A model generated the notes under the pieces. It worked only from the letters and a program-made list of their open reading frames with translations, was not told the DNA's origin and searched no databases. Shown here piece after piece: positions 1 through 64,000 of a stretch of 64,000 bases of DNA (the stretch's first letter is position 1; each line of letters opens with the position of its first letter). The position numbers were made by a program, and so were the translations under genes. The stretch is from positions 31,560-95,559 of the forward strand of contig CAJQUW010011238.1 in the NCBI GenBank assembly GCA_907163375.1, in the 5' to 3' direction. Origin of the DNA: Prostheceraeus crozeri (taxonomy: Eukaryota > Platyhelminthes > Polycladida > Euryleptidae).

Positions 1-110
1 ATACATTTCCTATGAGTAGCCTGCAAGCCAGGCAGAAACCGGTCGGGAAGTAATGACTTTTCTTTGAGTCTTTTCATTTATGGTATTATTTCATTTTGAT
101 TCATTTTCCT

Positions 111-114
111 ATAT

Positions 115-160
<46 letters not shown>
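111..160. repeat. (TA)n microsatellite
   Basis: About 50 bases of nearly pure AT dinucleotide. It directly abuts the 3' end of the minus-strand SINE-like copy at 161-262, so it may be that copy's expanded (TA)n tail rather than an independent microsatellite. Open frames of repeated Ile-Tyr across it are not genes. Confidence 0.95.
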
Positions 161-162
<2 letters not shown>

Positions 163-262
163 AATCTCAACAGATGTAACCACCACGAGACATGTTTCGA
201 CCTGTTGGGCCTCATCAGTCGTGGGTAGATTTGAACCAACGACGTTGGAGCTAGAGGAGGCA
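161..262 (-). mobile_element. SINE-like element, copy 1 (hammerhead-bearing, minus)
   Basis: This arm is the near-perfect reverse complement of 319-420, separated by a 56-base spacer. Read on the minus strand it has a pol III B-box-like GGTTCAAATC (plus 228-237), then a complete hammerhead motif (183-224), then runs into the (TA)n tract. Seen directly: the inverted repeat, the box and the ribozyme motif. Inference: a short tRNA-like-headed, hammerhead-tailed retroposon, comparable in design to the schistosome Sm-alpha type. A foldback MITE that merely contains these motifs is the alternative. Confidence 0.55.
183..224 (-). ncRNA. Type I hammerhead ribozyme motif, canonical core
   Basis: On the minus strand: helix I strand CCACGA, core CTGATGA (plus 212-218), helix II GGCC/GGTC with loop CAACA, GAAA, minimal helix III from ACATGT, cleavage triplet GTC, then TCGTGG closing helix I. 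All invariant core bases are present and the base pair next to the core in helix II is G-C. Helix III is only two base pairs and palindromic, as in short-stem metazoan hammerheads that work as dimers. Activity is inferred, not shown. Confidence 0.7.
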
Positions 263-299
263 GCATTGCCTTCCTGGCTTATTCACGCTCTCAACAGAT

Positions 300-420
300 G
301 GTCAGGTGGCCTTGTGGTTGCCTCCTCTAGCTCCAACGTCGCTGGTTCAAACCTACCCACGACTGATGATGCCCAACAGGCCGAAACATGTCTCGTGGTG
401 GTTACATCTGTTGAGATTTG
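300..420 (+). mobile_element. SINE-like element, copy 2 (hammerhead-bearing, plus)
   Basis: Plus-strand partner of the inverted pair; the shared arm is 319-420. Its head contains TGGCCTTGTGG (307-317), a good tRNA A-box match, and GGTTCAAACC (344-353), a B-box, with tRNA-like spacing. The hammerhead motif follows at 357-398 and the copy ends in TTGAGATTTGATAAATTT, where copy 1 has (TA)n. A short reverse complement of the tail lies just upstream (about 290-301), hinting at more than two units originally. The neighbouring piggyBac starts 31 bases downstream. Confidence 0.55.
357..398 (+). ncRNA. Type I hammerhead ribozyme motif
   Basis: Helix I CCACGA (357-362) / TCGTGG (393-398), core CTGATGA (363-369), helix II GCC/GGC with loop CAACA, GAAAC then ATGTC (383-392). 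Predicted cleavage is after C392. Unlike copy 1, the first helix II position is T opposite C, a mismatch that could weaken it. Helix III is again the palindrome ACATGT. Confidence 0.65.
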
Positions 421-998
421 ATAAATTTATTAATTGCCAGGTTACATGTCTTAACCCATATTATACCACTGTCCCTAAAAAGGAACGCTTAATCTTTCGA
501 CTGTCAACGTCAAAATATAACATTAATGAACAAACTTAGAGATTAACGGGAAGCTATTTACCAAATATATTAATAATATACATGGATTTGTCTTGAATAT
601 TATCTGTACTACTACTCAGATGATAGAGTTCTGTATTTTTAAAATTTCTTAGCAAAAAAATAAAAAAATATTTTCTAATACTCATTTACATGATCCATTA
701 TACTTAACTTCTAGAAATGTGATAATCCTTAGTTGTTTGATGCATTGTTGTGATGCAGTCAAAATATGATTGCAAAATAATTTATCTGTTTGGAGAAATA
801 ATCGATTATGTAACCGTCCCGATTTAGGGACGTTGGGTACGAATGACCCCCGTGACATTGAAAAATGAAAACATTCAGAACGTCATTTGAATAAACTTCT
901 GACTCATTTTATGTGTTGTGGTACACATGTTCCTTTCATTTTTTCTAAATTTAGTTGTGTTTTGTAAAATTATTTCAGTTAGATTTTGTTTAAATCTC

Positions 999-1080: not shown

Positions 1081-1572
1081 GTAAGTTTTAATTTCATCTA
1101 AATAATTGTTCTCAGGGTATGCTATGATAATCGCAATGAACTGTATGTAGTAGAAGGTTAGTATCTACATTAAATGTGCCAGTCAATAGCAAGATTAATA
1201 TTTTACCTATAGGTAGGGGTAGGCCTATAAATGTTGTATATAAACATATTGGCTACATATTAGTAATATCTCAATGGCGGTTAACCGACAATTGAATGAA
1301 TAGCTATCCATTATCAAAATAGGCTGTAGGCTTGATAGTTAGACAGTTTACATCTGGTTTAATTAATTTACTTTCCAAAGTAGGCTACTGTTAATTTCTG
1401 TATCTCTCTCATTAGTTTGAAGCTTATTAGTCTACACTAGCCCTTTAATGATATGTTACTATAATCATAATCTTTTCATTGGATATGGAATTATCTTAGT
1501 TTCTGTAAGGTAAAACGTCAATCGAATGCAAAATGATGACAAGCATCTTCATTCATCTTCTTTACATTTCAG

Positions 1573-3123
1573 GAAGATGAGTTATCAATTGCGGATGCCT
1601 CAAATCAACCAAAATCACGATTTGCCAAATACCGAAATCGAGAGTGCAGCAGAATTATATCATCTCGATGGAGAAAGGAAGATATTCCGACGAATTTATC
1701 TACTCAAAGAAGTTGGACAAACGATATGCCATCACTGATTAATGAATCCGATTCCCCTAGCACGATATTTGAAAAATTTTTTGATGACGATGTTATTTCT
1801 ATGATAATGGAAGAAACTACAAGGTATGCTGTTAGTAATGGAAAACATAATTTTCAAGTGGCATCAAATGAGATACGCTTAGTTTTGGCAATTCTTATCA
1901 TTTCTGGATACGTTCCTCTTCCTAGAAGGAAAATGTATTGGGAGTTAAAGTCTGATGTTCACAACGAAGCTGTATCAAAGGCAATGTCCAGAAATCGTTT
2001 TGATGAAATCATTCGATATCTACATTTGGCAGACAATGACCATTTATCTTCGGACGACCGGTTTTCGAAAGTTCGTCCTCTACTTGACAAAATGAATGAG
2101 AGATGCTTGAAAATCCAGCCAAATGAACAAGAATTATCAATTGACGAGTCGATGACTCCATATTTTGGACGTCATGGCAACAAACAATGTATAAGAAATA
2201 AGCCCATTCGATTTGGTTTCAAAACATGGGTGTTGGCTACCAGTGGAGGCTATGTAATACAATTCGATCCGTATCAAGGCAGTAAATCAACGTATGACAA
2301 AAATCTTGGATTAGGTTATAGCGTGGTCACCAATCTTCTTGATTCGCTTCCAAGCCACCTCCCCTTTTGTGTGACATTCGACAATTTTTTTACGTCATTA
2401 CGTCTTGTTTCTGATTTAGCCGAAGAAGGATTCGGAGCAACAGGGACAATCAGAGGTAATCGGCTTCAAAAATGTTCGATTTCCTCTTCCAAAGAATTAA
2501 GTAAACAACCGAGAGGAGCATTTGATTACCGCTACGATCGACAAAATGAAATCATAACTGTAAGTTGGAATGATAACAGCGTTGTTACACTGGTATCCAA
2601 CATACACGGTGTCTTCCCTTTGAATAGCGCCAAAAGGTGGTCAATGAAAGAAAAGAAATTCATGCAGGTTGAGCAACCACGCATCGTACAAGCGTATAAC
2701 AAAGCTATGGGAGGGGTCGATCGTATGGATCAAAGTATCTCTTGCTATCGAATAAACATCAGGACAAAGAAATGGTGGTGGCCTTTCTTTGCGCATTGCT
2801 TAGATATGGCATTGCAAAATGCCTGGCTATTACATAGAAAAAACAGTTCAGAAAAATTGGATCAACTGTCTTTCAGACGAGAGATTGTTGATGTCTACTT
2901 GCGACGGTATTCAGCTTCAAATGAAAATTCACCAGTAGCACGAAAGATTGCACGCTTGGATAATAAAGTCCCAGGTGAGATTAGACGTGATGGAAAAGGG
3001 CATTTCATCATCTCAGAAAGTACACAAAGAAGATGCGCCTATTGTGGGAAGAAAACTTACAGACGTTGCATGAAGTGCCAAGTGCCTCTCCACCTTGAAT
3101 GTTTGCAAAGCTTCCATCAATGA
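1573..3123 (+). CDS. piggyBac transposase, main exon
   Basis: DNA cut-and-paste transposase (DDD, DDE_Tnp_1_7 family). The frame is open from the acceptor at 1572 through the ATG at 1726 to TGA, about 516 codons. Catalytic aspartates are in recognisable family contexts: SIDESMTPYFG, VTFDNFFTS and NKAMGGVDRMD. The C-terminus ends in a cysteine-rich zinc-binding module (RRCAYCGKKTYRRCMKC then HLEC), as expected for DNA binding by this family. The length fits the usual 550-600 residues once exon 1 is added. No frameshift or stop is visible. Downstream AATAAAA near 3200 could serve for polyadenylation. PGBD-like genes domesticated by hosts normally lack termini; here they are present, so this is a transposon gene. 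Confidence 0.93.
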   Translation, partial: EDELSIADASNQPKSRFAKYRNRECSRIISSRWRKEDIPTNLSTQRSWTNDMPSLINESDSPSTIFEKFFDDDVISMIMEETTRYAVSNGKHNFQVASNEIRLVLAILIISGYVPLPRRKMYWELKSDVHNEAVSKAMSRNRFDEIIRYLHLADNDHLSSDDRFSKVRPLLDKMNERCLKIQPNEQELSIDESMTPYFGRHGNKQCIRNKPIRFGFKTWVLATSGGYVIQFDPYQGSKSTYDKNLGLGYSVVTNLLDSLPSHLPFCVTFDNFFTSLRLVSDLAEEGFGATGTIRGNRLQKCSISSSKELSKQPRGAFDYRYDRQNEIITVSWNDNSVVTLVSNIHGVFPLNSAKRWSMKEKKFMQVEQPRIVQAYNKAMGGVDRMDQSISCYRINIRTKKWWWPFFAHCLDMALQNAWLLHRKNSSEKLDQLSFRREIVDVYLRRYSASNENSPVARKIARLDNKVPGEIRRDGKGHFIISESTQRRCAYCGKKTYRRCMKCQVPLHLECLQSFHQ

Positions 3124-3433: not shown

Positions 3434-3461
3434 TATATATATATATATATATATATATATG
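3434..3461. repeat. (TA)n microsatellite
   Basis: Short pure TA tract just outside the 3' TTAA of the piggyBac element. Confidence 0.95.
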
Positions 3462-3502: not shown

Positions 3503-3610
3503 TCTGGACTGTATAGTCGAGTGTCTCTTTTATGAGTCCGATGTTATAAATAATCTTATAACTTTATAATATCGAACTCATAAAAGAGACACGCGACTCT
3601 ACAATCCAGA
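3503..3610. repeat. Hairpin MITE, 48-bp arms
   Basis: Arms starting tctggactgtatagtcgag (3503) and ending cgcgactctacaatccaga (3610) are inverted copies with a few mismatches around a short AT-rich loop. No coding capacity. The superfamily is not recognisable from the ends. Confidence 0.75.
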
Positions 3611-6912: not shown

Positions 6913-7180
6913 CTTATAAAACTCCAGTGTTCACAAAGACTGGATCACTCACTTGGCCGGTCAGTCGAACAACACTTGTGCACCTTGCGATCTACCGGTC
7001 AGGGCATTCAAGAATTACAATGTTTAATGAACACGAAATAGTAAACTGACTATTATATAGTGCTTTAGTGAAATGAGCATTATGCTAACTATTATATTGC
7101 TTTTTGATGGACCTCATGAATCTGCAGCTTTATCAACTTTTATATCAACTCGCTGTGGGTCGATACGGGAGGTTCATTTC
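6913..7180. other. Gap before Penelope-like element
   Basis: Nothing recognisable apart from the 9-base tatatcaac at 7141-7149, which recurs at 9686-9694 beyond the Penelope-like element and may be its target duplication, with 31 extra bases (7150-7180) before the left arm. Confidence 0.4.
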
Positions 7181-7262
7181 AGGATACGTAATTTCCAAAT
7201 AAATGAAAATAAAGACGTCACTCCCTTCTATTTACGACTTTTTATTTCAATTTAAAAATAAG

Positions 7263-7300
7263 CACCCGACGCGTTTCGTCCGAAGACAGTCTCAAGGGTG
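7263..7300 (-). ncRNA. Hammerhead-like motif, left arm of Penelope-like element
   Basis: Mirror copy of the motif at 9564-9601, identical in sequence, so the same core changes apply. Confidence 0.4.
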
Positions 7301-7356
7301 GCGTACAAATGTGGAAGGATCCTTATATACTGATTAGGCATAGTTGTGGCAACTCA

Positions 7357-7872
7357 TTAAACTTGTTCATGACGTCTATTAAGTTTTGGCATTTTCATCG
7401 CTATGAAGTGTGCTTCAGCCATTCTAGTTGTAATCGCATTAAATTGTTGAATAAGGATCTCACAACTAAAGTCAGTTATTTCCATCTCTCTACCAGCATG
7501 AAATTTTAGATGATGCTCGCTCAAAGCACTTTTGGAATCTCTGTTGCGAATACTACGTTCGTGTTCTTGATAGCGCAACTTGAAAGGTCGACAACTTTGT
7601 CCAACATAGAGGTCATTGCACCAAAAGCAATTAAAACAATAAACTAGATATCTGCTTTTGCAGTTGTATTTAGGACCAATGGCGCTACACACATTACAAT
7701 TGCATTCTTCTTTGGGTTTGCTTTTATTAATTGAAATAATTTTTCTCCCTGGTTTAGTTGAAAACGTTACCGGAATGTCATATTTAACTTTCAACTTATT
7801 TAATACTCTCAAATGACAATCACTAACGAAATCGAGTGATAAGTGGACGTTGTCTGCTTTGATAGATGGCAT
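7357..7872 (-). pseudogene. GIY-YIG endonuclease fragment in inverted arm
   Basis: Minus-strand frame of about 170 codons identical, save for R to H, to the C-terminal end of the plus-strand ORF at 8991-9507. It contains the cysteine-rich lead-in and the GIY-YIG core (LVYCF ... LYVGQS). The frame runs past the arm boundary into unrelated sequence to 8013. It is the product of the inverted partial copy, not a separate gene. Confidence 0.85.
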
Positions 7873-7879
7873 TTTATTG

Positions 7880-9507
7880 GCAGAACTGAAAATATTCTCA
7901 ATGACACCGCTACGTATACTCTGCGTAAAAAATCTAAAACTGCAGCTATTGAAAATCAGGCTAACAAAATAATTCGTTCGAAATGTAGAAATATTCCACG
8001 TATTGATCATCAAAGATTACTTTCAATAGGCAGTAAACCATCTGCATTCCATGTAAATGTCAAAGATCACAAGGATAAAGTGAATGATTTTTACCCGCTT
8101 CGCCCGATAGCATCCGTAAAGAATACACCAACCCAAAAGGTTGACTGGCTAGCCAGTACTATACTTAACCAACTAGTTAAATTTGTGCCTTCTCATCTGG
8201 ACAGTACTCATTCACTGATAAATAATTTAAAAAAGAACAGTAATTATGTAAAAAACCAAATTTTCATTTCATTAGACGTTCAAAATCTTTACCCTAGCAT
8301 TCCGATTGCTGACGCCATAGATGTTGTAAAGTCATTTGCAACTAAATTTTGGTCAAAAATAGATAACCTTGGTTTCTCGGTTCAAGACCTTGTAGATTTT
8401 CTTAAGTTTATTTCATACAATTATGAGATAGATTATAATCATAAGACGTACCATCAAATTAAAGGGTGCCCAATGGGTGCACACTTCTCGCCACCTTTTG
8501 CAGTTATATATATGAATGCTATAGAAGAAAGAGCACTAAAAATTCTTAACCAAAAATTCAATATTAACCCTGTATGCTACAAGCGGTACATTGATGATAT
8601 CATCATGGGTCCGTTTTACAAAGATGTGAAAATATTTTCTAACATAATTGAAGTGTTTAACTCGATTGACAAGAACATTCAGTTCACTATAGAAGTCCCT
8701 AGGGATAATTATATTAACTTTCTAGACCTAAGCATATCAGTGAATGGCAACCTTAAATACAAATGGTTTAGTAAGACATGTCATTCAGGCATAACTCTAC
8801 ATAGAGATAGTTGGCTTCCAAATAAAGTAAAAAATAATTTTCTCAAAAATAGTATAAAATACATTAATGATCGCAGTTCTGATGCAGACATAGCTTATGA
8901 CTCTATGAGCACTATGAGTGATCGAATAAACAGCAACGGATTTAGGTTTAATCATAAATTTGTTAAAACGAATAAAAATAAATACAATAAAATGCCATCT
9001 ATCAAAGCAGACAACGTCCACTTATCACTCGATTTCGTTAGTGATTGTCATTTGAGAGTATTAAATAAGTTGAAAGTTAAATATGACATTCCGGTAACGT
9101 TTTCAACTAAACCAGGGAGAAAAATTATTTCAATTAATAAAAGCAAACCCAAAGAAGAATGCAATTGTAATGTGTGTAGCGCCATTGGTCCTAAATACAA
9201 CTGCAAAAGCAGATATCTAGTTTATTGTTTTAATTGCTTTTGGTGCAATGACCTCTATGTTGGACAAAGTTGTCGACCTTTCAAGTTGCGCTATCAAGAA
9301 CACGAACGTAGTATTCGCAACAGAGATTCCAAAAGTGCTTTGAGCGAGCATCATCTAAAATTTCATGCTGGTAGAGAGATGGAAATAACTGACTTTAGTT
9401 GTGAGATCCTTATTCAACAATTTAATGCGATTACAACTAGAATGGCTGAAGCACGCTTCATAGCGATGAAAATGCCAAAACTTAATAGACGCCATGAACA
9501 AGTTTAA
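7880..9507 (+). CDS. Penelope-like RT plus GIY-YIG endonuclease, N-terminally truncated
   Basis: About 540 codons open. Order: RT finger region; FISLDVQNLYPSIPI (motif A); KGCPMGAHFSPPFAVIYMN (motif B); CYKRYIDDIIMG (motif C, YIDD at 8587-8598); INFLDLSISVNG (thumb FLDL); then KPKEECNCNVC cysteine cluster and the GIY-YIG nuclease (LVYCF, LYVGQSCRPFKLRYQEH) near the C-terminus. It performs target-primed reverse transcription with endonuclease cleavage in this family. The frame enters from the inverted arm, so the true start and the N-terminal part of the usual 800-residue protein are missing. No stop or frameshift inside. Likely dead for lack of the N-terminus. Confidence 0.92.
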
Positions 9508-9563
9508 TGAGTTGCCACAACTATGCCTAATCAGTATATAAGGATCCTTCCACATTTGTACGC

Positions 9564-9601
9564 CACCCTTGAGACTGTCTTCGGACGAAACGCGTCGGGT
9601 G
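9564..9601 (+). ncRNA. Hammerhead-like ribozyme motif, core altered
   Basis: Helix I CACCC/GGGTG, helix II GTC-TTCG-GAC, GAAAC, palindromic ACGCGT as helix III, cleavage triplet GTC with predicted cut after 9596. The first core segment reads CTTGAGA rather than the invariant CTGANGA, so two essential positions are changed. Architecture is clearly hammerhead, activity doubtful. Position near the element's 3' end matches hammerheads reported in Penelope-like terminal repeats. Confidence 0.5.
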
Positions 9602-9785
9602 CTTATTTTTAAATTGAAATAAAAAGTCGTAAATAGAAGGGAGTGACGTCTTTATTTTCATTTATTTGGAAATTACGTATCCTTCTATATCAACAATACC
9701 GCCTACGTTTAGTCAAATAGATGTTATGCGACCTGTGAGAACGCAATAATCAGACATTCTACGGACTTGTTGAAAATTTTGTACA

Positions 9786-10315: not shown

Positions 10316-11942
10316 CAGTCCGTTTCATAAAAAGTGGATCATCCTAAAATTTGACTAAATAAAACATAAGTATGATACAGAAAGCATTTTTCATGTTATT
10401 TCATGTCCCTAATATATTTAAATGTCCTTATATAATCTGATAAGCTATGATACAGTAACAGTTCTTAAGAAGCTAATATTTTGTGGCCCTACCCTTATTG
10501 TCAATGACATTAGGCTACCAATTCGTCTAGGCATTGATTCGATGATATCGTTGATTTTTGACAGATCTAACTTTCTCCACTCTCTTTTTAACAGTGACGT
10601 AAGTTGTGATACGCCGTCTGTAGGTAGCAGTGAACGACGAACGTTACGTTTTAGAATACTCCATACATTTTCTATGGGATTCAGATCAGGAGAACGAGCT
10701 GGCCAAGATAATGTCCTAAGCCCTAATTGAGACTTGCATAAGTTGACTCTACTACTCCTGTGACACGTAGCATTATCATCCATAAATAACCAAGTCGATG
10801 GATCACCAAGTTGATCTGTCATTTGGCCAATGTTCATTCGTAAAACATTCACATAGCGTTCAGAATTCATGGGTCCAAATGCCAGCCCAAATCAGTGGAG
10901 TCGAACCACCTTGTACCCGGGGACGATGTAAATGTCTCGGAATTTCCTGATCAGATTTTATCCATAATCTCAATCGACCATCACTATCCTTCAGACGGAC
11001 TGATGCCTCATCAGACCAGACAACCCGATCCCATTGATTTCGCCAGTGAAAATGACTCATTGCCTACCTGAGACGTCTTTTTGTATGCTGATCTGATGAT
11101 TCGATCTGAGAGGGCCTCTTACAGCTCTTGAAATTCGACTCAATAAGTTTCTACGAATAGTGGACTTAGAAATAGACGAGTCTAGTGCAGCCATCTCAGT
11201 TAACGAGAGACTTGGATCAACTTTAACAAATCTCAAAATTAGGCGGTCACTACGTTTGGATGTTTTGCGTGGACGGCCAGAGCCCTCTTTACGACAGAGT
11301 CGAAAATCATCATTATGCCATCGATGCACATTTGTGTAAGGGACATTTAGTCGCTTGCTTGTAGCTCGCAAAGAAAACAACCCTAGTTCTAGCAAGGCTG
11401 ACACTTGCCTTTTGTGAATGCGATCTCGTTATTGTTCAGTTGTGCTTTGTATTGTTTTCAACCGGTAAGAAATAGATTTCTAGCTGAAAGCAATCAGGAG
11501 TGCTGCCAACACCACCGCAACGAAGTCAGGAAGCTATGGAACATGAAGTCCAGTTAATCACATGTAGCAGTTACATTATTGTTGATGAATAATGGTGCTA
11601 TACTGGCTCTGATTGACCGATTTTCTTTATTTTTGTTTTGCTTGATAGCTTTTGGCTTGTAGAACAACATATTACATAACAAAGGAAACAAATGTAATTT
11701 TATAAGAGTGAGGTATGATTTTGTGTAACATTGCTAAATGAAGATCAAATTATCTACTATTTTTTTATCTATAACAGGAAAACAACTCAATATTCATGCT
11801 TAAAATTTCCAACAATGATATTAGTAAGCACAACTGACATATCTTCCAAATTTCAGAGAAATTCTTTCAAGTTTGGCGGAGTTAGACAAAGTTGAAGTTA
11901 AGGCGATGTTTAAGGGTGATCCATTTTTTATGAAACAATCTG
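10316..11942 (-). mobile_element. Tc1-like transposon, copy A (degraded coding region)
   Basis: Bounded by TA (10314-10315 and 11943-11944). Termini CAGTCCGTTTCATAAAAAGT and the complement of tttatgaaacaatctg form inverted repeats of about 30 bases including the GGATCA(C/T)CC block. The transposase lies on the minus strand. A second copy of the same family, inverted, starts at 62861. Confidence 0.92.
10445..11404 (-). pseudogene. Tc1 transposase, broken into three frames
   Basis: Order on the minus strand: helix-turn-helix region with GSGRPRKTSKRSDRLILRF; first catalytic aspartate in RVVWSDEASVRL; second in WLFMDDNATCH; catalytic glutamate in SPDLNPIENVW, giving DD34E spacing. Frameshifts or stops separate the parts near 11060 and 10865. 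The nominal start at 11404 is GTG, and no in-frame ATG precedes it before a stop. Copy B shares this, so the family as represented here lacks an evident start. It moves DNA by cut and paste at TA; this copy cannot. Confidence 0.9.
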
Positions 11943-12307
11943 TAGTAATAAGAGTAAAACCCGCCACTAAATTTTGTATCAATAATTTATCTTCCTTATT
12001 AAATTAACTCCCTAATTCCGATCGGGATCCAGTGATTTGTGATCCCCAGTCATCATTGACTGAGTTGTAAAAATCTTGTCGATCCCCTTATCGGACGCAG
12101 GCGTCAGCAACTATGGCGAGAAGAATTGCTTTTGTTTGTGAACAGGTGCAGAGCAGACAGGCGACTCCGTCTGCAGATCAGAGATTCGAAATCTTCTGAC
12201 CTCAACTCAACCGAGAGAAATGATGACTCACCAAATGACTGAGTGTGGGAATAAGACAAATTTGAAGTTTGCCAGTGAACGGATGGGCTGATCTTAATAA
12301 AACTTAC

Positions 12308-44960: not shown

Positions 44961-47780
44961 ATGAAGAGAGGAATATCGATGGTGCTTGCGGCTTTGGAGA
45001 ACATAGAAGAAAATAAACGTGAGTACAACTTATGAATTCCAAATCAAGCCCTAATCCCCTACATCGCCAATCCCTAATCAAAAGAATTGAAATATGGATA
45101 GTCAAGATTACAAAATAGCTAATACGTCGCGAAATTTAATAAAAAATGTCAATTTCTATGTCTTTGTAACTGTACTTCTTCATGTAATTTAAGTAAAAGC
45201 TTCAGTAATAAAATAATGAACTAAATATAAGCTATTAGTTGTAAGGCATTATGATATATTTTAGAAATACATAATTGAAATTAAAGCCTAAACATTATAA
45301 GAAAAGAAACTATACTAAATTAAAATGTATTCATTTATCTGGTCAATTAATTACTTCAAACCTGCAGCTAAGTGAATCACTGGGGTCGGCCCTACCCTTC
45401 CCCCTGGTCGATTTTCTAAAATGAATCAGAAGCAGTGACCAAAATTGATTATTTCATTTATTTTTCCAGCTCGAAACTGTTCAGTATTGTCTGCAGAGAA
45501 AGTTCTCTCCTCCATCAAATCCATCATGGTGGAAAACGATGGACAGGAAAATGACGTACTTCACTACAACGGTGACCATTCATACACTCCAATAATCTCC
45601 AACCCTTCTCCAACCTCTTTGATCGGTGTGAATCAATGTGATGTTTCTTTTGACTTGATACGGGATTTTCCACTCGACAATTCAGTTGGAACTTCAGATT
45701 TATTTGCGGATGTTCTGATTGACATTCCTGCGACGGGCTATTCAGTGGCGATTTCTGATTTGCCCACATAGTACTCGATGATCTACTCAATGGCACAAAC
45801 GATTCACTTGATGCCACAATCGACCCACTCAGTGCCACAAACGATCCACTCGGTGCCAAAAACGATCCACTTGATGCCACAAACGATTCACTCAATGTCG
45901 CAGACGATTTACTTGATGGCATAAGAGACCCGCAGTCGTAAATACTTCTGAAACTCGTAATAACGATACCATAGAGACATCCTTCGAAATTGACGGTGTT
46001 CCTGTCGAACAATTGAATTCAAATTCTTTACCTAATCCAAGCCGGAAAGTGAATAAGCGCATAATGAATAAGAAGTTGAAAGATAACGGTAAATCATATC
46101 AAGATCAGCAAGGCAGAAAACGATTGGAACGCACTTTATTGCCAAGATGCAATCACACAGAGAATGAGAAACGTTTTTATTGCCACCAATTTACTGATGA
46201 GTTGCGATCATGTATTTTCAACAGTTTTTATGAATAGGATCTTCAAGAGCAGCATAATTTCTTTGCAAGACATGTCATAATCGTTAATTCAAAAGATCGC
46301 CCTGATGAATTCAATAAGAAGAAGGGGTTGTCCCTAAGATACCATCTTACTATGACTGATCTGAAAATATCTGTTTGCAAGTCGATGTTCTTATCAACGA
46401 TAGGACATACTTGTGACCAACAAGTGAGAACCGTGATAAAGAAGACTGACAGCGAAGGATTTGTTAACAAAGATGCTAGAGGTGGTGCTCGAAAGGAAAT
46501 CATTCAGAAAAGTATCAGAAATTCAATAAAGGAGCACATCAACTTATACCCGAGAGTAGAGAGCCACTATACCAGAAAAGATTCGACTTGCCACTATTTG
46601 AATCCGACACTTAGTGTATTGAAAATGTATGAAATGTACCAGGAATGGGCTAATAACCAAGTTCTTACCGTGGCATCTTTGTCGACCTACAGAAATGTAT
46701 TCAATAGCTTGAATATCAAGTTCTTCAAGCCAAAGAAAGATCTATGTGACTTATGTGCAACAGCAAACCCGGCTTTTCCAAATGAAGAAACAGAGATGGA
46801 AAGGGAGAACAGAAACACATTGCAATCAAGGTGGGAGGAACATATTTCGGAGAAGAACATCGTGAGGGAGCAGAAAAAAGACGATAAAGAATGTGCCAAG
46901 GTAAATGGAGGGATGGCTGCTGCTGTATTTGACCTGATGCAGGTAGTCTATTTGCCTATTTCAAACAATTCGTCCATATTCTATAAAAGGAGATTATCTT
47001 GCTATTGTTTTACGATATTCGATTTGGGCTCAGGTCAAGGATATTCATTTTGTTGGAATGAAACAGAAGCTCACAGAGGTGCAAATGAAATATCTTCGTG
47101 TGTATTTCACTACCTGAGAGACATCGATACATCTTCTTTTGGATACTAAGAAGATCGCTCTGTATGCTGATGGATGCGCTGGGCAGAAGAAAAATAGCAT
47201 ACTCCTTGCCATGATACACCATTTCCTGGCATCCTCCAAAACGATCGAATGCGTCACATTGACTTATTTTGTAGCAGGACATGGGGAATCTGAAGGAGAT
47301 GCCATGCATTCAACGATAGAGGGTGGAATAAAGCGGGCAGGCAATGTATTCGTTCCTCAGGAACTCACTACAATTACCAAAATGTCATGTCGGAAAAAGC
47401 CATATAAGACCTTCACGTTGGCAAACAATGAGTTTTTTTTGCTCGATTTCAAAAGTTACCGGAACGATATTGGTCTTCTATGCAATAGGACTCTTCGAAC
47501 GAGCTCGAACCATTTAGACTGGACGAAAATAAGAAAGGTTAAATTAGAAAAAGGCAATGATCAAATTTTTTTGAAATTCAGCCACCATTATGATGAATGG
47601 GACATTTTGGACATAAACACAAAACGAAATAGAAATCTAAATGAGCCCAAGCCACTATCAAAAGATCCTGTCAAGCTGTCCAAAGCTAAATATGACGATT
47701 TGTTGTCTTTGCGTCGTGGGACGACCCCAGTTATTCCGCCCGGACATGCCGAATTCTACCGCAGTCTTCCTCATTCTTGA
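44961..47780 (+). pseudogene. Transposase of the 44.3-kb element, damaged
   Basis: Exon 1 44961-45018 (MKRGISMVLAALENIEENK, donor GTGAGT) joins in frame to exon 2 at 45470 (acceptor tttttccag). Then 45470-45771; a frameshift; an 8-residue tandem repeat (NDPLDAT-like, 45776-45925); 45950-46237 ending in a TAG; 46238-47149; a frameshift near 47140; and 47139-47780. Conserved-looking parts: KKDLCDLCATA, HYTRKDSTCHYL, VFDLMQVVYLP, NETEAHRGANEI, LYADGCAGQKKN, GHGESEGDAMH. These suggest an RNase-H-fold transposase. Three lesions make it a pseudogene. Expected intact length is roughly 700-750 residues. Confidence 0.75.
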
Positions 47781-62512: not shown

Positions 62513-62860
62513 ATTTGTCTAGATATCGATTGAGTAAGTCTATCATGCCATTCTACGTAACATTTCCTATTGACAACGCGTGCACTTAGTGAGTTAGTTC
62601 ACACTCAGCTATCTATGATTTTAGACGTCATTATTCTTTCTGCATTAGCTGCATAAGTCAATCACTGGATATCCATGGTCAATCATACAGCGCATTTCTT
62701 AAATGTAAGTTGAACAGTCTACAGTCCGCTATCTATGACTTCTGATGTGCATTGCCTTATCAATATACTCTCCTTTTAATCTGACCAATGGTCAAAGAAT
62801 TCATGAATTCATAGAAATATAATCGGGTAGCAAGCATCTTTCAGAAACGGTATTAAAGTA

Positions 62861-64000
62861 CAGATTGTTTCATAAAAAATGGATCACCCTTAAACATCGC
62901 CTTAACTTCCAATTTGTCTAACTCCGCCAAACTTGAACGAATTTCTCTGAAATTTGGAAGATATGTCAGTTGTGCTTACTAATATCATTGTTGGAAATTT
63001 CAAGCATGAATATTGAGTTGTTTTCCTGTTATAGATAAAAAAATAGTAGATAATTTGATCTTCATTTAGCAATGTTACACAAAATCATACCTCACTCTTA
63101 TAAAATTACATTTGTTTCCTTTGTTATGTTATATGTTGTTCTACAAGCCAAAAGCGATCAAGCAAAACAAAAATAAAGAAAATCGGTCAATCAGAGCCAG
63201 TATAGCACCATTATTCATCAACAATAATGTAACTGCTACATGTGATTAACTGGACTTCATGTTCCATAGCTTCCTGACTTCGTTGCGGTGGTGTTGGCAG
63301 CACTCCTGATTGCTTTCAGCTAGAAATCTATCTCTTACCGGTTGAAAACAATACAAAGCACAACTGAACAATAACGAGATCGCATTCACAAAAGGCAAGT
63401 GTCAGCCTTGCTAGAACTAGGGTTGTTTTCTTTGCGAGCTACAAGCAAGCGACTAAATGTCCCTTACACAAATGTGCATCGATGGCATAATGATGATTTT
63501 CGACTCTGTCGTAAAGAGGGCTCTGGCCGTCCACGCAAAACATCCAAACGTAGAGACCGCCTAATTTTGAGATTTGTTAAAGTTGATCCAAGTCTCCCGT
63601 TAACTGAGATGGCTGCACTAGTCTCGTCTATTTCTAAGTCCACTATTCGTAGAAGACTTATTGAGTCGAATTTCAAGAGCTGTAAGAGGCCCTCTCAGAT
63701 CGGATTATCAGATCAGCATACAAAAAGACGTCTCAGATGGGCAATGAGTCATTGTCACTGGCGAAATCAATTGGATCGGGTTGTCTGGTCTGATGAGGCA
63801 TCAGTCCGTCTGAAGGATAGTGATGGTCTTATCTATGTGACCACCACGTGGATGTTTTACGAATGAACATTGGCCAAATGACAGATCAACCTGGTGATCC
63901 ATCGACTTGGTTATTTATGGATGATAATGCTACGTGTCACAGGAGTAGTAGAGTCAACTTATGCAAGTCTCAATTAGGGCTTAGAATATTATCTTGGCCA
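62861..64000 (+). mobile_element. Tc1-like transposon, copy B (cut by window end)
   Basis: Starts CAGATTGTTTCATAAAAAAT after TA at 62859-62860. Near-identical to copy A (10316-11942) in inverted orientation, including about 500 non-coding bases before the transposase. Compared with copy A, roughly 110-130 bases are missing after the first catalytic block (about 63826-63845). Confidence 0.92.
63381..63990 (+). pseudogene. Tc1 transposase, copy B, internal deletion
   Basis: One frame covers the helix-turn-helix, GSGRPRKTSKRRDRLILRF and WSDEASVRLKDSDG without the frameshift seen in copy A, then a deletion shifts it out of frame to a stop at 63864-63866. The second-aspartate region (WLFMDDNATCH) resumes in another frame at about 63908-63940. 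The start is GTG with no upstream in-frame ATG. Non-functional. Confidence 0.88.

What the first reader, a model, noticed from the sequence alone, without database searches (positions are those of the whole stretch)
161..420. Head-to-head SINE-like copies, each with pol III-type boxes and a type I hammerhead ribozyme
Both arms carry CTGATGA ... GAAAC ATGTC with matching helix I and II pairing, and at least one arm has both A- and B-box-like motifs upstream. A tRNA-like head with a hammerhead tail and a (TA)n end would be a small self-processing retroposon, comparable to the schistosome Sm-alpha family. The minus-strand copy has every invariant core base and a proper G-C at the start of helix II.
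Basis: partly seen in the sequence, partly recalled or inferred. Interest (0 to 1): 0.78.

Follow-up and report, generated by a model that had tools for sequence, protein, structure and literature searches.

The report
Inverted pair of hammerhead retroposon copies
In an animal-like genome, two nearly identical copies of what looks like a short RNA-derived mobile element lie head to head, each carrying a recognisable self-cutting hammerhead RNA, in a layout known from Penelope-type retrotransposons; it is a further example of a known kind with one testable clue about how such elements spread.

Summary
Two copies, 95% identical over 112 nt, lie head to head at 151-262 and 319-430. The minus copy has a complete type I hammerhead (core, 6-bp helix I, 4-bp helix II; cleavage expected after C189). 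The plus copy has a U·C mismatch at the base of helix II. Rfam's HH9 matches both, below its curated cut-off. An exact B box precedes both ribozymes; an A box with one mismatch is seen only in the plus copy; no tRNA is detected.

I read it as a short hammerhead retroposon of the schistosome Sm-alpha or metazoan-retrozyme kind. The head-to-head layout, beside a (TA)n tract, is one reported for Penelope-like elements (PLEs). A PLE 7 kb away in this window has that layout, 9-bp flanking repeats, and a hammerhead-like 3' motif with palindromic loop III. Mobilisation by a PLE is plausible, not shown. Copy number, cleavage and host could not be tested. New member of a known kind.

The parts
161..290 (-). 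minus-strand copy of the unit (ends assigned by me: 5' end near 290, 3' end near 161); its first ~28 nt are not alike the plus copy's beyond chance
   Evidence: inverted repeat I5; alignment and shuffles
291..421 (+). plus-strand copy of the unit (ends assigned by me)
   Evidence: TCAACAGATG at its start pairs with CATCTGTTGA (405-414) in the predicted fold of 291-415
183..224 (-). type I hammerhead, complete: helix I CCACGA/TCGTGG, CTGATGA, helix II GGCC-CAACA-GGTC, GAAA, A-CATG-T, cleavage expected after C189
357..398 (+). type I hammerhead with a U·C mismatch at the base of helix II (TGCC-CAACA-GGCC); cleavage expected after C392
190..195 (-). ACATGT: self-complementary helix III of the minus copy
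   Evidence: sequence; dimer energy
386..391 (+). ACATGT: self-complementary helix III of the plus copy
   Evidence: sequence; dimer energy
350..356 (+). AACC (outer helix I, pairs with GGTT 400-403) and the bulge TAC; AACC overlaps the B box
   Evidence: predicted fold of 347-412
345..353 (+). B-box-like GTTCAAACC, exact to the recalled consensus GWTCRANNC
228..236 (-). B-box-like GTTCAAATC, exact to the same consensus
299..317 (+). two overlapping A-box-like words, TGGTCAGGTGG (299) and TGGCCTTGTGG (307), each with one mismatch to the recalled 11-nt consensus TRGYNNANNGG
110..160 (.). (TA)25.5 tract abutting the 3' end of the minus copy: AT-rich target or tail
7181..7879 (-). inverted copy of the last 699 nt of the window's Penelope-like element
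   Evidence: arms 7181-7879 / 8985-9683, 100% complementary, 1105 nt between
7880..9683 (+). apparently 5'-truncated Penelope-like element (reverse transcriptase, C-terminal GIY-YIG-like region), head to head with the inverted copy
   Evidence: RVT_1 8.7e-11; weak Eco29kI match, E 0.0097; family name PLE from the layout and my reading of the protein
9564..9601 (+). hammerhead-like motif at the 3' end of the PLE: CACCC-TTGAGACT-GTC-TTCG-GAC-GAAA-CGCG-TC-GGGTG, palindromic CGCG in loop III; core differs from CTGATGA
   Evidence: not found by Rfam at E<=10
7263..7300 (-). the same motif in the inverted PLE copy
7141..7180 (.). TATATCAAC (7141-7149), repeated at 9686-9694, then a 31-nt extension up to the left arm

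Best explanation
The locus holds two copies of one short (~130 nt) non-coding retroposon with a pol III-type internal promoter at its head and a type I hammerhead near its 3' end, joined head to head. Inferred working: pol III (or read-through) makes an RNA; two hammerheads, in tandem in one RNA or on two RNAs, pair through the self-complementary ACAUGU of helix III and cut after C17; the product is ligated or used directly as template by a reverse transcriptase supplied in trans, most plausibly that of a Penelope-like element. The head-to-head, 3'-ends-outward layout beside an AT repeat is read as a trace of PLE-type integration. At this locus the minus ribozyme is intact in sequence, the plus one probably slow or dead, and an RNA through both arms is predicted to fold into one long hairpin that hides both. 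Shown: sequence, pairing possibilities, layout, boxes. Inferred: transcription, cleavage, dimer requirement, PLE mobilisation.
For: Hammerhead core, helices and Rfam HH9 similarity; rarity. Hammerhead layout with a palindromic loop III, without asking for the core: 3 places in 64 kb, the minus arm and the two identical PLE copies, against 13 in 200 random 64-kb sequences (scan written after I had seen both motifs). A double hammerhead is evaluated at -26.0 kcal/mol (minus) and -23.6 (plus), against -4.7 and -3.5 for one monomer with its A-U helix III. B box exact in both arms; B plus one-mismatch A in 3 of 4000 shuffles of the plus head. The window's PLE has the same head-to-head layout, with a 31-nt extension and 9-bp flanking repeats; a rotifer Penelope is reported with an inverted pLTR, a 31-bp 'tail' and a 9-bp TSD, and the same paper calls head-to-head the most frequently observed inverted arrangement and says that Penelope favours simple AT-rich targets (PMC3846280, passages). 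PLEs carry minimal type I hammerheads that may act as dimers (PMC7761336, passages).
Against: No second locus in the window and no genome to count copies. Rfam scores below cut-off. No tRNA; 7 A+B pairs pass the same loose test in the window, so the boxes alone are weak. No duplication of 7 nt or more between 61-165, 263-300 and 416-520 (best 6 nt between the outer flanks). No pol III terminator near: first TTTT on + after the unit at 636; none for the minus unit before the window's edge. No similarity of the unit to the PLE's 3' end in the self-comparison. The PLE differs in having ORF sequence in its arms and a non-canonical hammerhead core. Folding: the single motifs are no more stable than shuffles (z -0.08 to -1.01), RNAfold's optimum is not the hammerhead, and for the longer minus RNA (262-167) it pairs GCCUC of the head with GAGGC of the core. 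Two monomers in RNAfold's optimum sum to -24.0 / -22.6, and another two-strand fold is slightly better than the double hammerhead (-28.5 / -25.7), so the energy case for the dimer is modest. In a lizard PLE, hammerhead cleavage was not needed for insertion in vitro (PMC11167929, passages).
Confidence: 0.55

Rival explanations
1. The arms are an inverted pair of pseudo-LTRs of another Penelope-like family that has lost its internal part; the pol III boxes are chance.
For: Same head-to-head layout as the window's PLE and palindromic loop III in both; solo pLTRs and foreign sequences captured between pLTRs are reported (PMC3846280, passages).
Against: The hammerhead is of the fuller type, with 6-bp helix I, outer stem and TAC bulge (plus arm) and 4-bp helix II (minus arm), whereas PLE hammerheads are described as minimal (PMC7761336, passages); no similarity to the window's PLE; exact B box in both arms.
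Confidence: 0.2
2. Two independent insertions of the same hammerhead SINE landed head to head, the second next to or in the first, moved by a LINE.
For: Both units are complete at the 3' end and the heads differ; Sm-alpha is described as SINE-like (PMC2770079, passages).
Against: No duplicated target of 7 nt or more between left flank, spacer and right flank; arms 95% identical.
Confidence: 0.2
3. A fold-back or MITE-type DNA transposon with long inverted ends (TA target of Tc1/mariner elements) that includes a hammerhead-like sequence without function.
For: The arms end in TATC/GATA, so a TA duplication is possible; Tc1- and mariner-type transposases occur in the window.
Against: TA next to a (TA)25 tract is uninformative; the full hammerhead is unlikely by chance.
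Confidence: 0.1
4. Chance: the hammerhead and box resemblances are accidental in an ordinary palindromic repeat.
For: Sub-threshold Rfam scores; degenerate A box; no unusual folding stability of the motif.
Against: 2 hits of the lenient motif in 150 random windows; 0 of 35 natural matches of the core have both helices.
Confidence: 0.03

Closest known systems
Sm-alpha / Sj-alpha SINE-like retroposons of schistosomes
   Same: short SINE-like element with a type I hammerhead and a tRNA-related head (PMC2770079, passages; PMC8490949, passages; Ferbeyre 1998 itself not held)
   Different: the window's head is not recognised as a tRNA, whereas 2,342 of 2,368 predicted S. mansoni tRNA-Gln-TTG genes were classed as SINEs similar to Sm-alpha; here minimal palindromic helix III and a head-to-head pair; copy number unknown; I compared no Sm-alpha sequence
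Metazoan non-LTR retrozymes
   Same: type I hammerhead in a short non-coding unit; weak helix III acting as dimer in amphibians (PMC7229834: abstract, sections 13, 14 and 17 read, passages of others)
   Different: retrozymes are described as tandem repeats of ~150-450 bp with GC below 50%; here an inverted pair, unit ~130 nt, GC 51-52%; most invertebrate retrozyme hammerheads are said to have a stable helix III (PMC7761336, passage), unlike here
Penelope-like elements and their pseudo-LTRs
   Same: head-to-head layout, AT-rich neighbour, minimal helix III (PMC3846280 and PMC7761336, passages)
   Different: no coding sequence; fuller hammerhead; no similarity to the window's PLE
S. mansoni W-element hammerheads
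   Different: satellite-like W elements; the passages I saw describe no head-to-head pairs
Aedes aegypti repeat and newt satellite hammerheads
   Same: palindromic stem/loop III that would pair in a dimer (PMC3088659, passages incl. the legend of Figure S8; PMC6155905, passages)
   Different: other repeat units; no inverted pair in the passages I saw
Hammerhead HH9 (Rfam RF02275)
   Same: best Rfam hammerhead match of both arms
   Different: scores well below the cut-off; HH9 is, as I recall, a single conserved intronic ribozyme of amniotes

Membership tests
type I hammerhead ribozyme | invariant core CUGANGA ... GAAA ... UH | tested here: met
   both arms
type I hammerhead ribozyme | helices I and II, including the pairs next to the core | tested here: inconclusive
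   minus arm met; plus arm has U·C at the base of helix II, a mispair that led Perreault et al. to reject hits (passage)
type I hammerhead ribozyme | open end in helix I | tested here: met
   order helix I - core - II - GAAA - III - UC - helix I in 357-398 and 224-183
type I hammerhead ribozyme | Rfam covariance model at curated cut-off | tested here: not met
   0 matches in the window; 28.2 and 25.7 of 52 bits for HH9. Other hammerhead families of the clan were scored in the same search; only the best per overlap is listed
type I hammerhead ribozyme | self-cleavage | not testable with these tools
   no bench data
Sm-alpha-like hammerhead SINE | tRNA-derived pol III head | tested here: inconclusive
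   exact B box both arms, one-mismatch A box in plus only; no tRNA by ARAGORN or Rfam
Sm-alpha-like hammerhead SINE | many dispersed copies | not testable with these tools
   genome not held; one locus in 64 kb
metazoan retrozyme | head-to-tail tandem repeats of 150-450 bp | tested here: not met
   inverted pair, no tandem at this locus
metazoan retrozyme | circular RNA product | not testable with these tools
   no RNA data
Penelope-like element | reverse transcriptase with GIY-YIG endonuclease | tested here: not met
   no frame of 110 aa or more in the unit but one (68-421, 117 aa, reading through the TA tract and both arms), which I did not scan against Pfam; the 56-nt spacer is too short for such a gene
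Penelope-like element | head-to-head inverted repeats with 3' ends outward | tested here: met
   same layout in the window's PLE
MITE / fold-back DNA element | inverted ends flanked by a target duplication | tested here: inconclusive
   no duplication of 7 nt or more; TA cannot be judged beside (TA)n

The most novel reading that the evidence does not exclude
A pol III-type hammerhead SINE is mobilised by a Penelope-like reverse transcriptase, and its head-to-head pair is the integration product: the same self-priming or template-jump event that gives PLEs their inverted pseudo-LTRs. If so, hammerhead SINEs, retrozymes and PLEs form one replication system held together by dimerising palindromic ribozymes.
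Probability: 0.3. Interest if true: 0.62.

Novelty: new member of a known kind. Interest (0 to 1): 0.4.

Why it matters
Which enzyme moves metazoan retrozymes is open; PLEs have been named a strong candidate on general grounds (PMC7229834, discussion read). A hammerhead retroposon in a layout reported for Penelope insertions, in the same 64 kb as a PLE of like layout that has a hammerhead-like motif with a palindromic loop III, gives a concrete structural test: count how many copies genome-wide are head-to-head pairs beside AT repeats.

Tried and rejected
Searched for the unit elsewhere: phages and plasmids by blastn, no match; IMG/VR for an exact 19-nt piece of the head, 0 matches; IMG/VR for the core with GAAACATGTC, 35 stretches, none with both helices. 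A looser hammerhead pattern gave 20 viral and 2 bacterial stretches; by eye many look like complete hammerheads of other build (listing), but my helix-I script handles one topology only, so I give no count, and I did not examine what these contigs are. The PLE protein in IMG/VR: 5 pattern matches, none confirmed. Own genome: not held. Papers: Ferbeyre 1998 and Cervera 2014 are not held; Lunse 2017 was seen only as cited by others. Literature searches that joined hammerhead with SINE terms were made; in those listings and the passages read, SINE-like elements with hammerheads were named for schistosomes, and one review says that retrozymes could be regarded as SINEs. This is not proof of absence.

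Rejected readings: (TA)n as a certain tail (the plus copy has no such tract); two independent ribozymes (the arms are copies of each other); significance of the A+B boxes on their own (7 such pairs in the window); a diverged but homologous minus head (85% of 2000 shuffles align as well). Rfam matches to mir-4788, a pestivirus UTR element and others are below their cut-offs and fall in the palindrome or the TA tract.

Full report
What is there. The window is animal-like DNA rich in transposons: of ten open frames scanned, matches include DDE_Tnp_1_7 (piggyBac type), Transposase_1 (mariner type), DDE_3 and HTH_Tnp_Tc3_2 (Tc1 type), DDE_Tnp_4 (Harbinger type) and a reverse transcriptase (the type names are recalled). 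The genome is not held, so the host is unknown. At 151-262 and 319-430 lie two inverted arms, 112 nt, 95% complementary, 56 nt apart. Each reads outwards from the centre as the same unit. Six of 112 positions differ: 342/239, 352/229, 370/211, 381/200 and two in the AT-rich ends.

The hammerhead. Both arms carry CTGATGA, a short hairpin, GAAA, CATG, TC, framed by CCACGA/TCGTGG. In the minus arm helix II is GGCC/GGTC with four pairs; in the plus arm it is TGCC/GGCC with U·C at the base, a mispair that led one survey to reject hits (PMC3088659, passage). In the predicted fold of the plus arm (347-412) a bulge TAC and an outer stem AACC/GGTT follow helix I. In the minus arm the same outer stem is possible with a G-U pair, but RNAfold's optimum pairs those bases differently. 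Rfam's nearest hammerhead family is HH9 for both arms, 28.2 and 25.7 bits against a cut-off of 52; at cut-offs the window has no Rfam match. Chance is small: a lenient version of the motif occurs in the window once, by its helices the minus arm, and twice in 150 random 64-kb sequences. Of 35 natural matches to the bare core in IMG/VR, several redundant, none has both helices by a strict count that the plus arm also fails. The motifs on their own are no more stable than dinucleotide shuffles (z -1.00, -0.08, -1.01, -0.55; the plus unit 291-415 has z -2.54), and the longer minus RNA, 262-167, is predicted to pair GCCUC of the head with GAGGC of the core instead of forming the hammerhead.

Helix III. 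GAAA-CATG-TC leaves one A-U pair closing a palindromic tetraloop, so ACAUGU is self-complementary. That is the form described for one family of axolotl hammerheads (a single pair capped by a palindromic tetraloop, PMC7229834, passage), and palindromic stem/loop III with a proposed dimer is shown for mosquito and other repeat hammerheads (PMC3088659, legend of Figure S8). Evaluated energies: minus motif -26.0 kcal/mol for the double hammerhead, -4.7 for a monomer with the A-U pair, -10.4 without it; plus motif -23.6, -3.5, -8.7. RNAfold's own optimum is a different fold, -12.0 and -11.3 per monomer (so -24.0 and -22.6 for two) and -28.5 and -25.7 for two strands. The energies permit the dimer but do not single it out.

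The head. An exact B-box word lies upstream of each ribozyme (345-353 plus, 236-228 minus); in the plus arm it overlaps the outer stem of helix I. In the plus arm two overlapping A-box words, each with one mismatch to an 11-nt consensus and two to the 12-nt form, start at 299 and 307, 46 and 38 nt before the B-box word. B plus A at 25-70 nt arises in 3 of 4000 dinucleotide shuffles of the plus head, B alone in 1.2%; for the minus head B alone arises in 2.4% and no one-mismatch A is present. The same loose test finds 7 A+B pairs and 25 exact B words in the whole window, both strands. The consensus words are recalled. No tRNA is found. The first ~28 nt of the two heads are not alike beyond chance. 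The head is pol III-like, not shown to be a tRNA.

The layout. The two units stand head to head with their 3' ends outward and a (TA)25.5 tract on the left. No duplicated target of 7 nt or more is seen. One other element in the window has this layout: a Penelope-like element, 7880-9683, apparently 5'-truncated, preceded by an inverted copy of its own last 699 nt, 7181-7879, at 100% identity. It is bounded by TATATCAAC at 7141 and 9686; between the left repeat and the left arm lie 31 nt, on the right 2 nt (random 80-nt pairs of the window share a 9-mer in 60 of 2000 draws, so the repeat alone is modest evidence). A rotifer Penelope insertion is described with an inverted pseudo-LTR, a 31-bp 'tail' and a 9-bp target duplication; the same paper calls head-to-head the most frequently observed inverted arrangement and says that Penelope favours simple AT-rich targets (PMC3846280, passages). 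There the inverted part is a pseudo-LTR of about 200 bp; here it includes coding sequence. The PLE's 3' end has a hammerhead-like motif, CACCC-TTGAGACT-GTCTTCGGAC-GAAACGCGTC-GGGTG, again with a palindromic loop III. A scan for hammerhead layout with a palindromic loop III, not asking for the CUGAUGA core and written after I had seen both motifs, returns three places in 64 kb, the minus arm and the two PLE copies, against 13 in 200 random 64-kb sequences; without the palindrome it returns 5 against 248 in 200. The plus arm is not returned. The PLE motif's core departs from CUGAUGA and Rfam does not see it at E<=10, so I call it hammerhead-like only. The C-terminal part of the PLE protein has only a weak match to Eco29kI, E 0.0097, below its cut-off; as I recall that is a GIY-YIG enzyme.

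How it most likely works. Shown: an inverted pair of short units, an intact hammerhead sequence in one, a damaged one in the other, pol III-like boxes, a minimal self-complementary helix III. Inferred: the unit is a hammerhead retroposon; cleavage works best with two ribozymes; the reverse transcriptase comes from a PLE; the inverted pair is an integration product. An RNA through both arms (161-430) is predicted to form one hairpin of -209 kcal/mol, z -26, hiding both ribozymes, so that only RNAs starting in the centre and reading one arm could fold the hammerhead.

Compared with what is known. Schistosome Sm-alpha and Sj-alpha are SINE-like retroposons with hammerheads (PMC2770079, passages; PMC8490949, passages). 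Metazoan retrozymes are tandem repeats with type I hammerheads, expressed as circles, for which PLEs are proposed as helpers (PMC7229834, sections 13, 14, 17); a review adds that they could be regarded as SINEs and that most invertebrate ones have a stable helix III (PMC7761336, passages), which this one lacks. The unit shares the hammerhead and small size but is not tandem, is shorter, and has 51-52% GC where retrozymes are below 50%. So it works like these, but membership of the retrozyme class fails on the tandem criterion at this locus, and membership of a SINE family cannot be tested without the genome. In a lizard PLE the hammerhead was not needed for insertion in vitro (PMC11167929, passages), which warns against assuming that cleavage is required.

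Verdict. Very probably a real hammerhead retroposon pair, one copy nearly intact; a new member of a known kind. The unusual thing is the Penelope-like layout, which makes a specific and easily tested prediction.

Noticed in passing
7141-9694: A Penelope-like element, apparently 5'-truncated, with a 699-nt inverted, 100% identical copy of its 3' end, a 31-nt extension and 9-bp flanking repeats; its 3' end carries a hammerhead-like motif with palindromic CGCG loop III but a non-canonical core.
   Followed up: yes
10700-11944 and 62859-64000: Two inverted copies of a Tc1-type transposon, 95-99% identical in three blocks, about 51 kb apart: a recent mobilisation.
   Followed up: no
1540-3123: An open frame of 527 aa (stop to stop) matching the whole piggyBac-type transposase domain (DDE_Tnp_1_7, 1.1e-94), about 1.1 kb from the finding.
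   Followed up: no
45780-45908: About six imperfect 21-nt tandem repeats, inside a minus-strand open frame of 164 aa, 45524-46018.
   Followed up: no
3503-3610: A 48-nt inverted repeat, 90% complementary, with a 12-nt loop, close to a second (TA)n tract at 3434-3460.
   Followed up: no
L036-L057: Hammerhead-like sequences in 20 IMG/VR contigs and two bacterial genome bins, matched by CTGATGANNCCNAANAGGNCGAAAC.
   Followed up: partly
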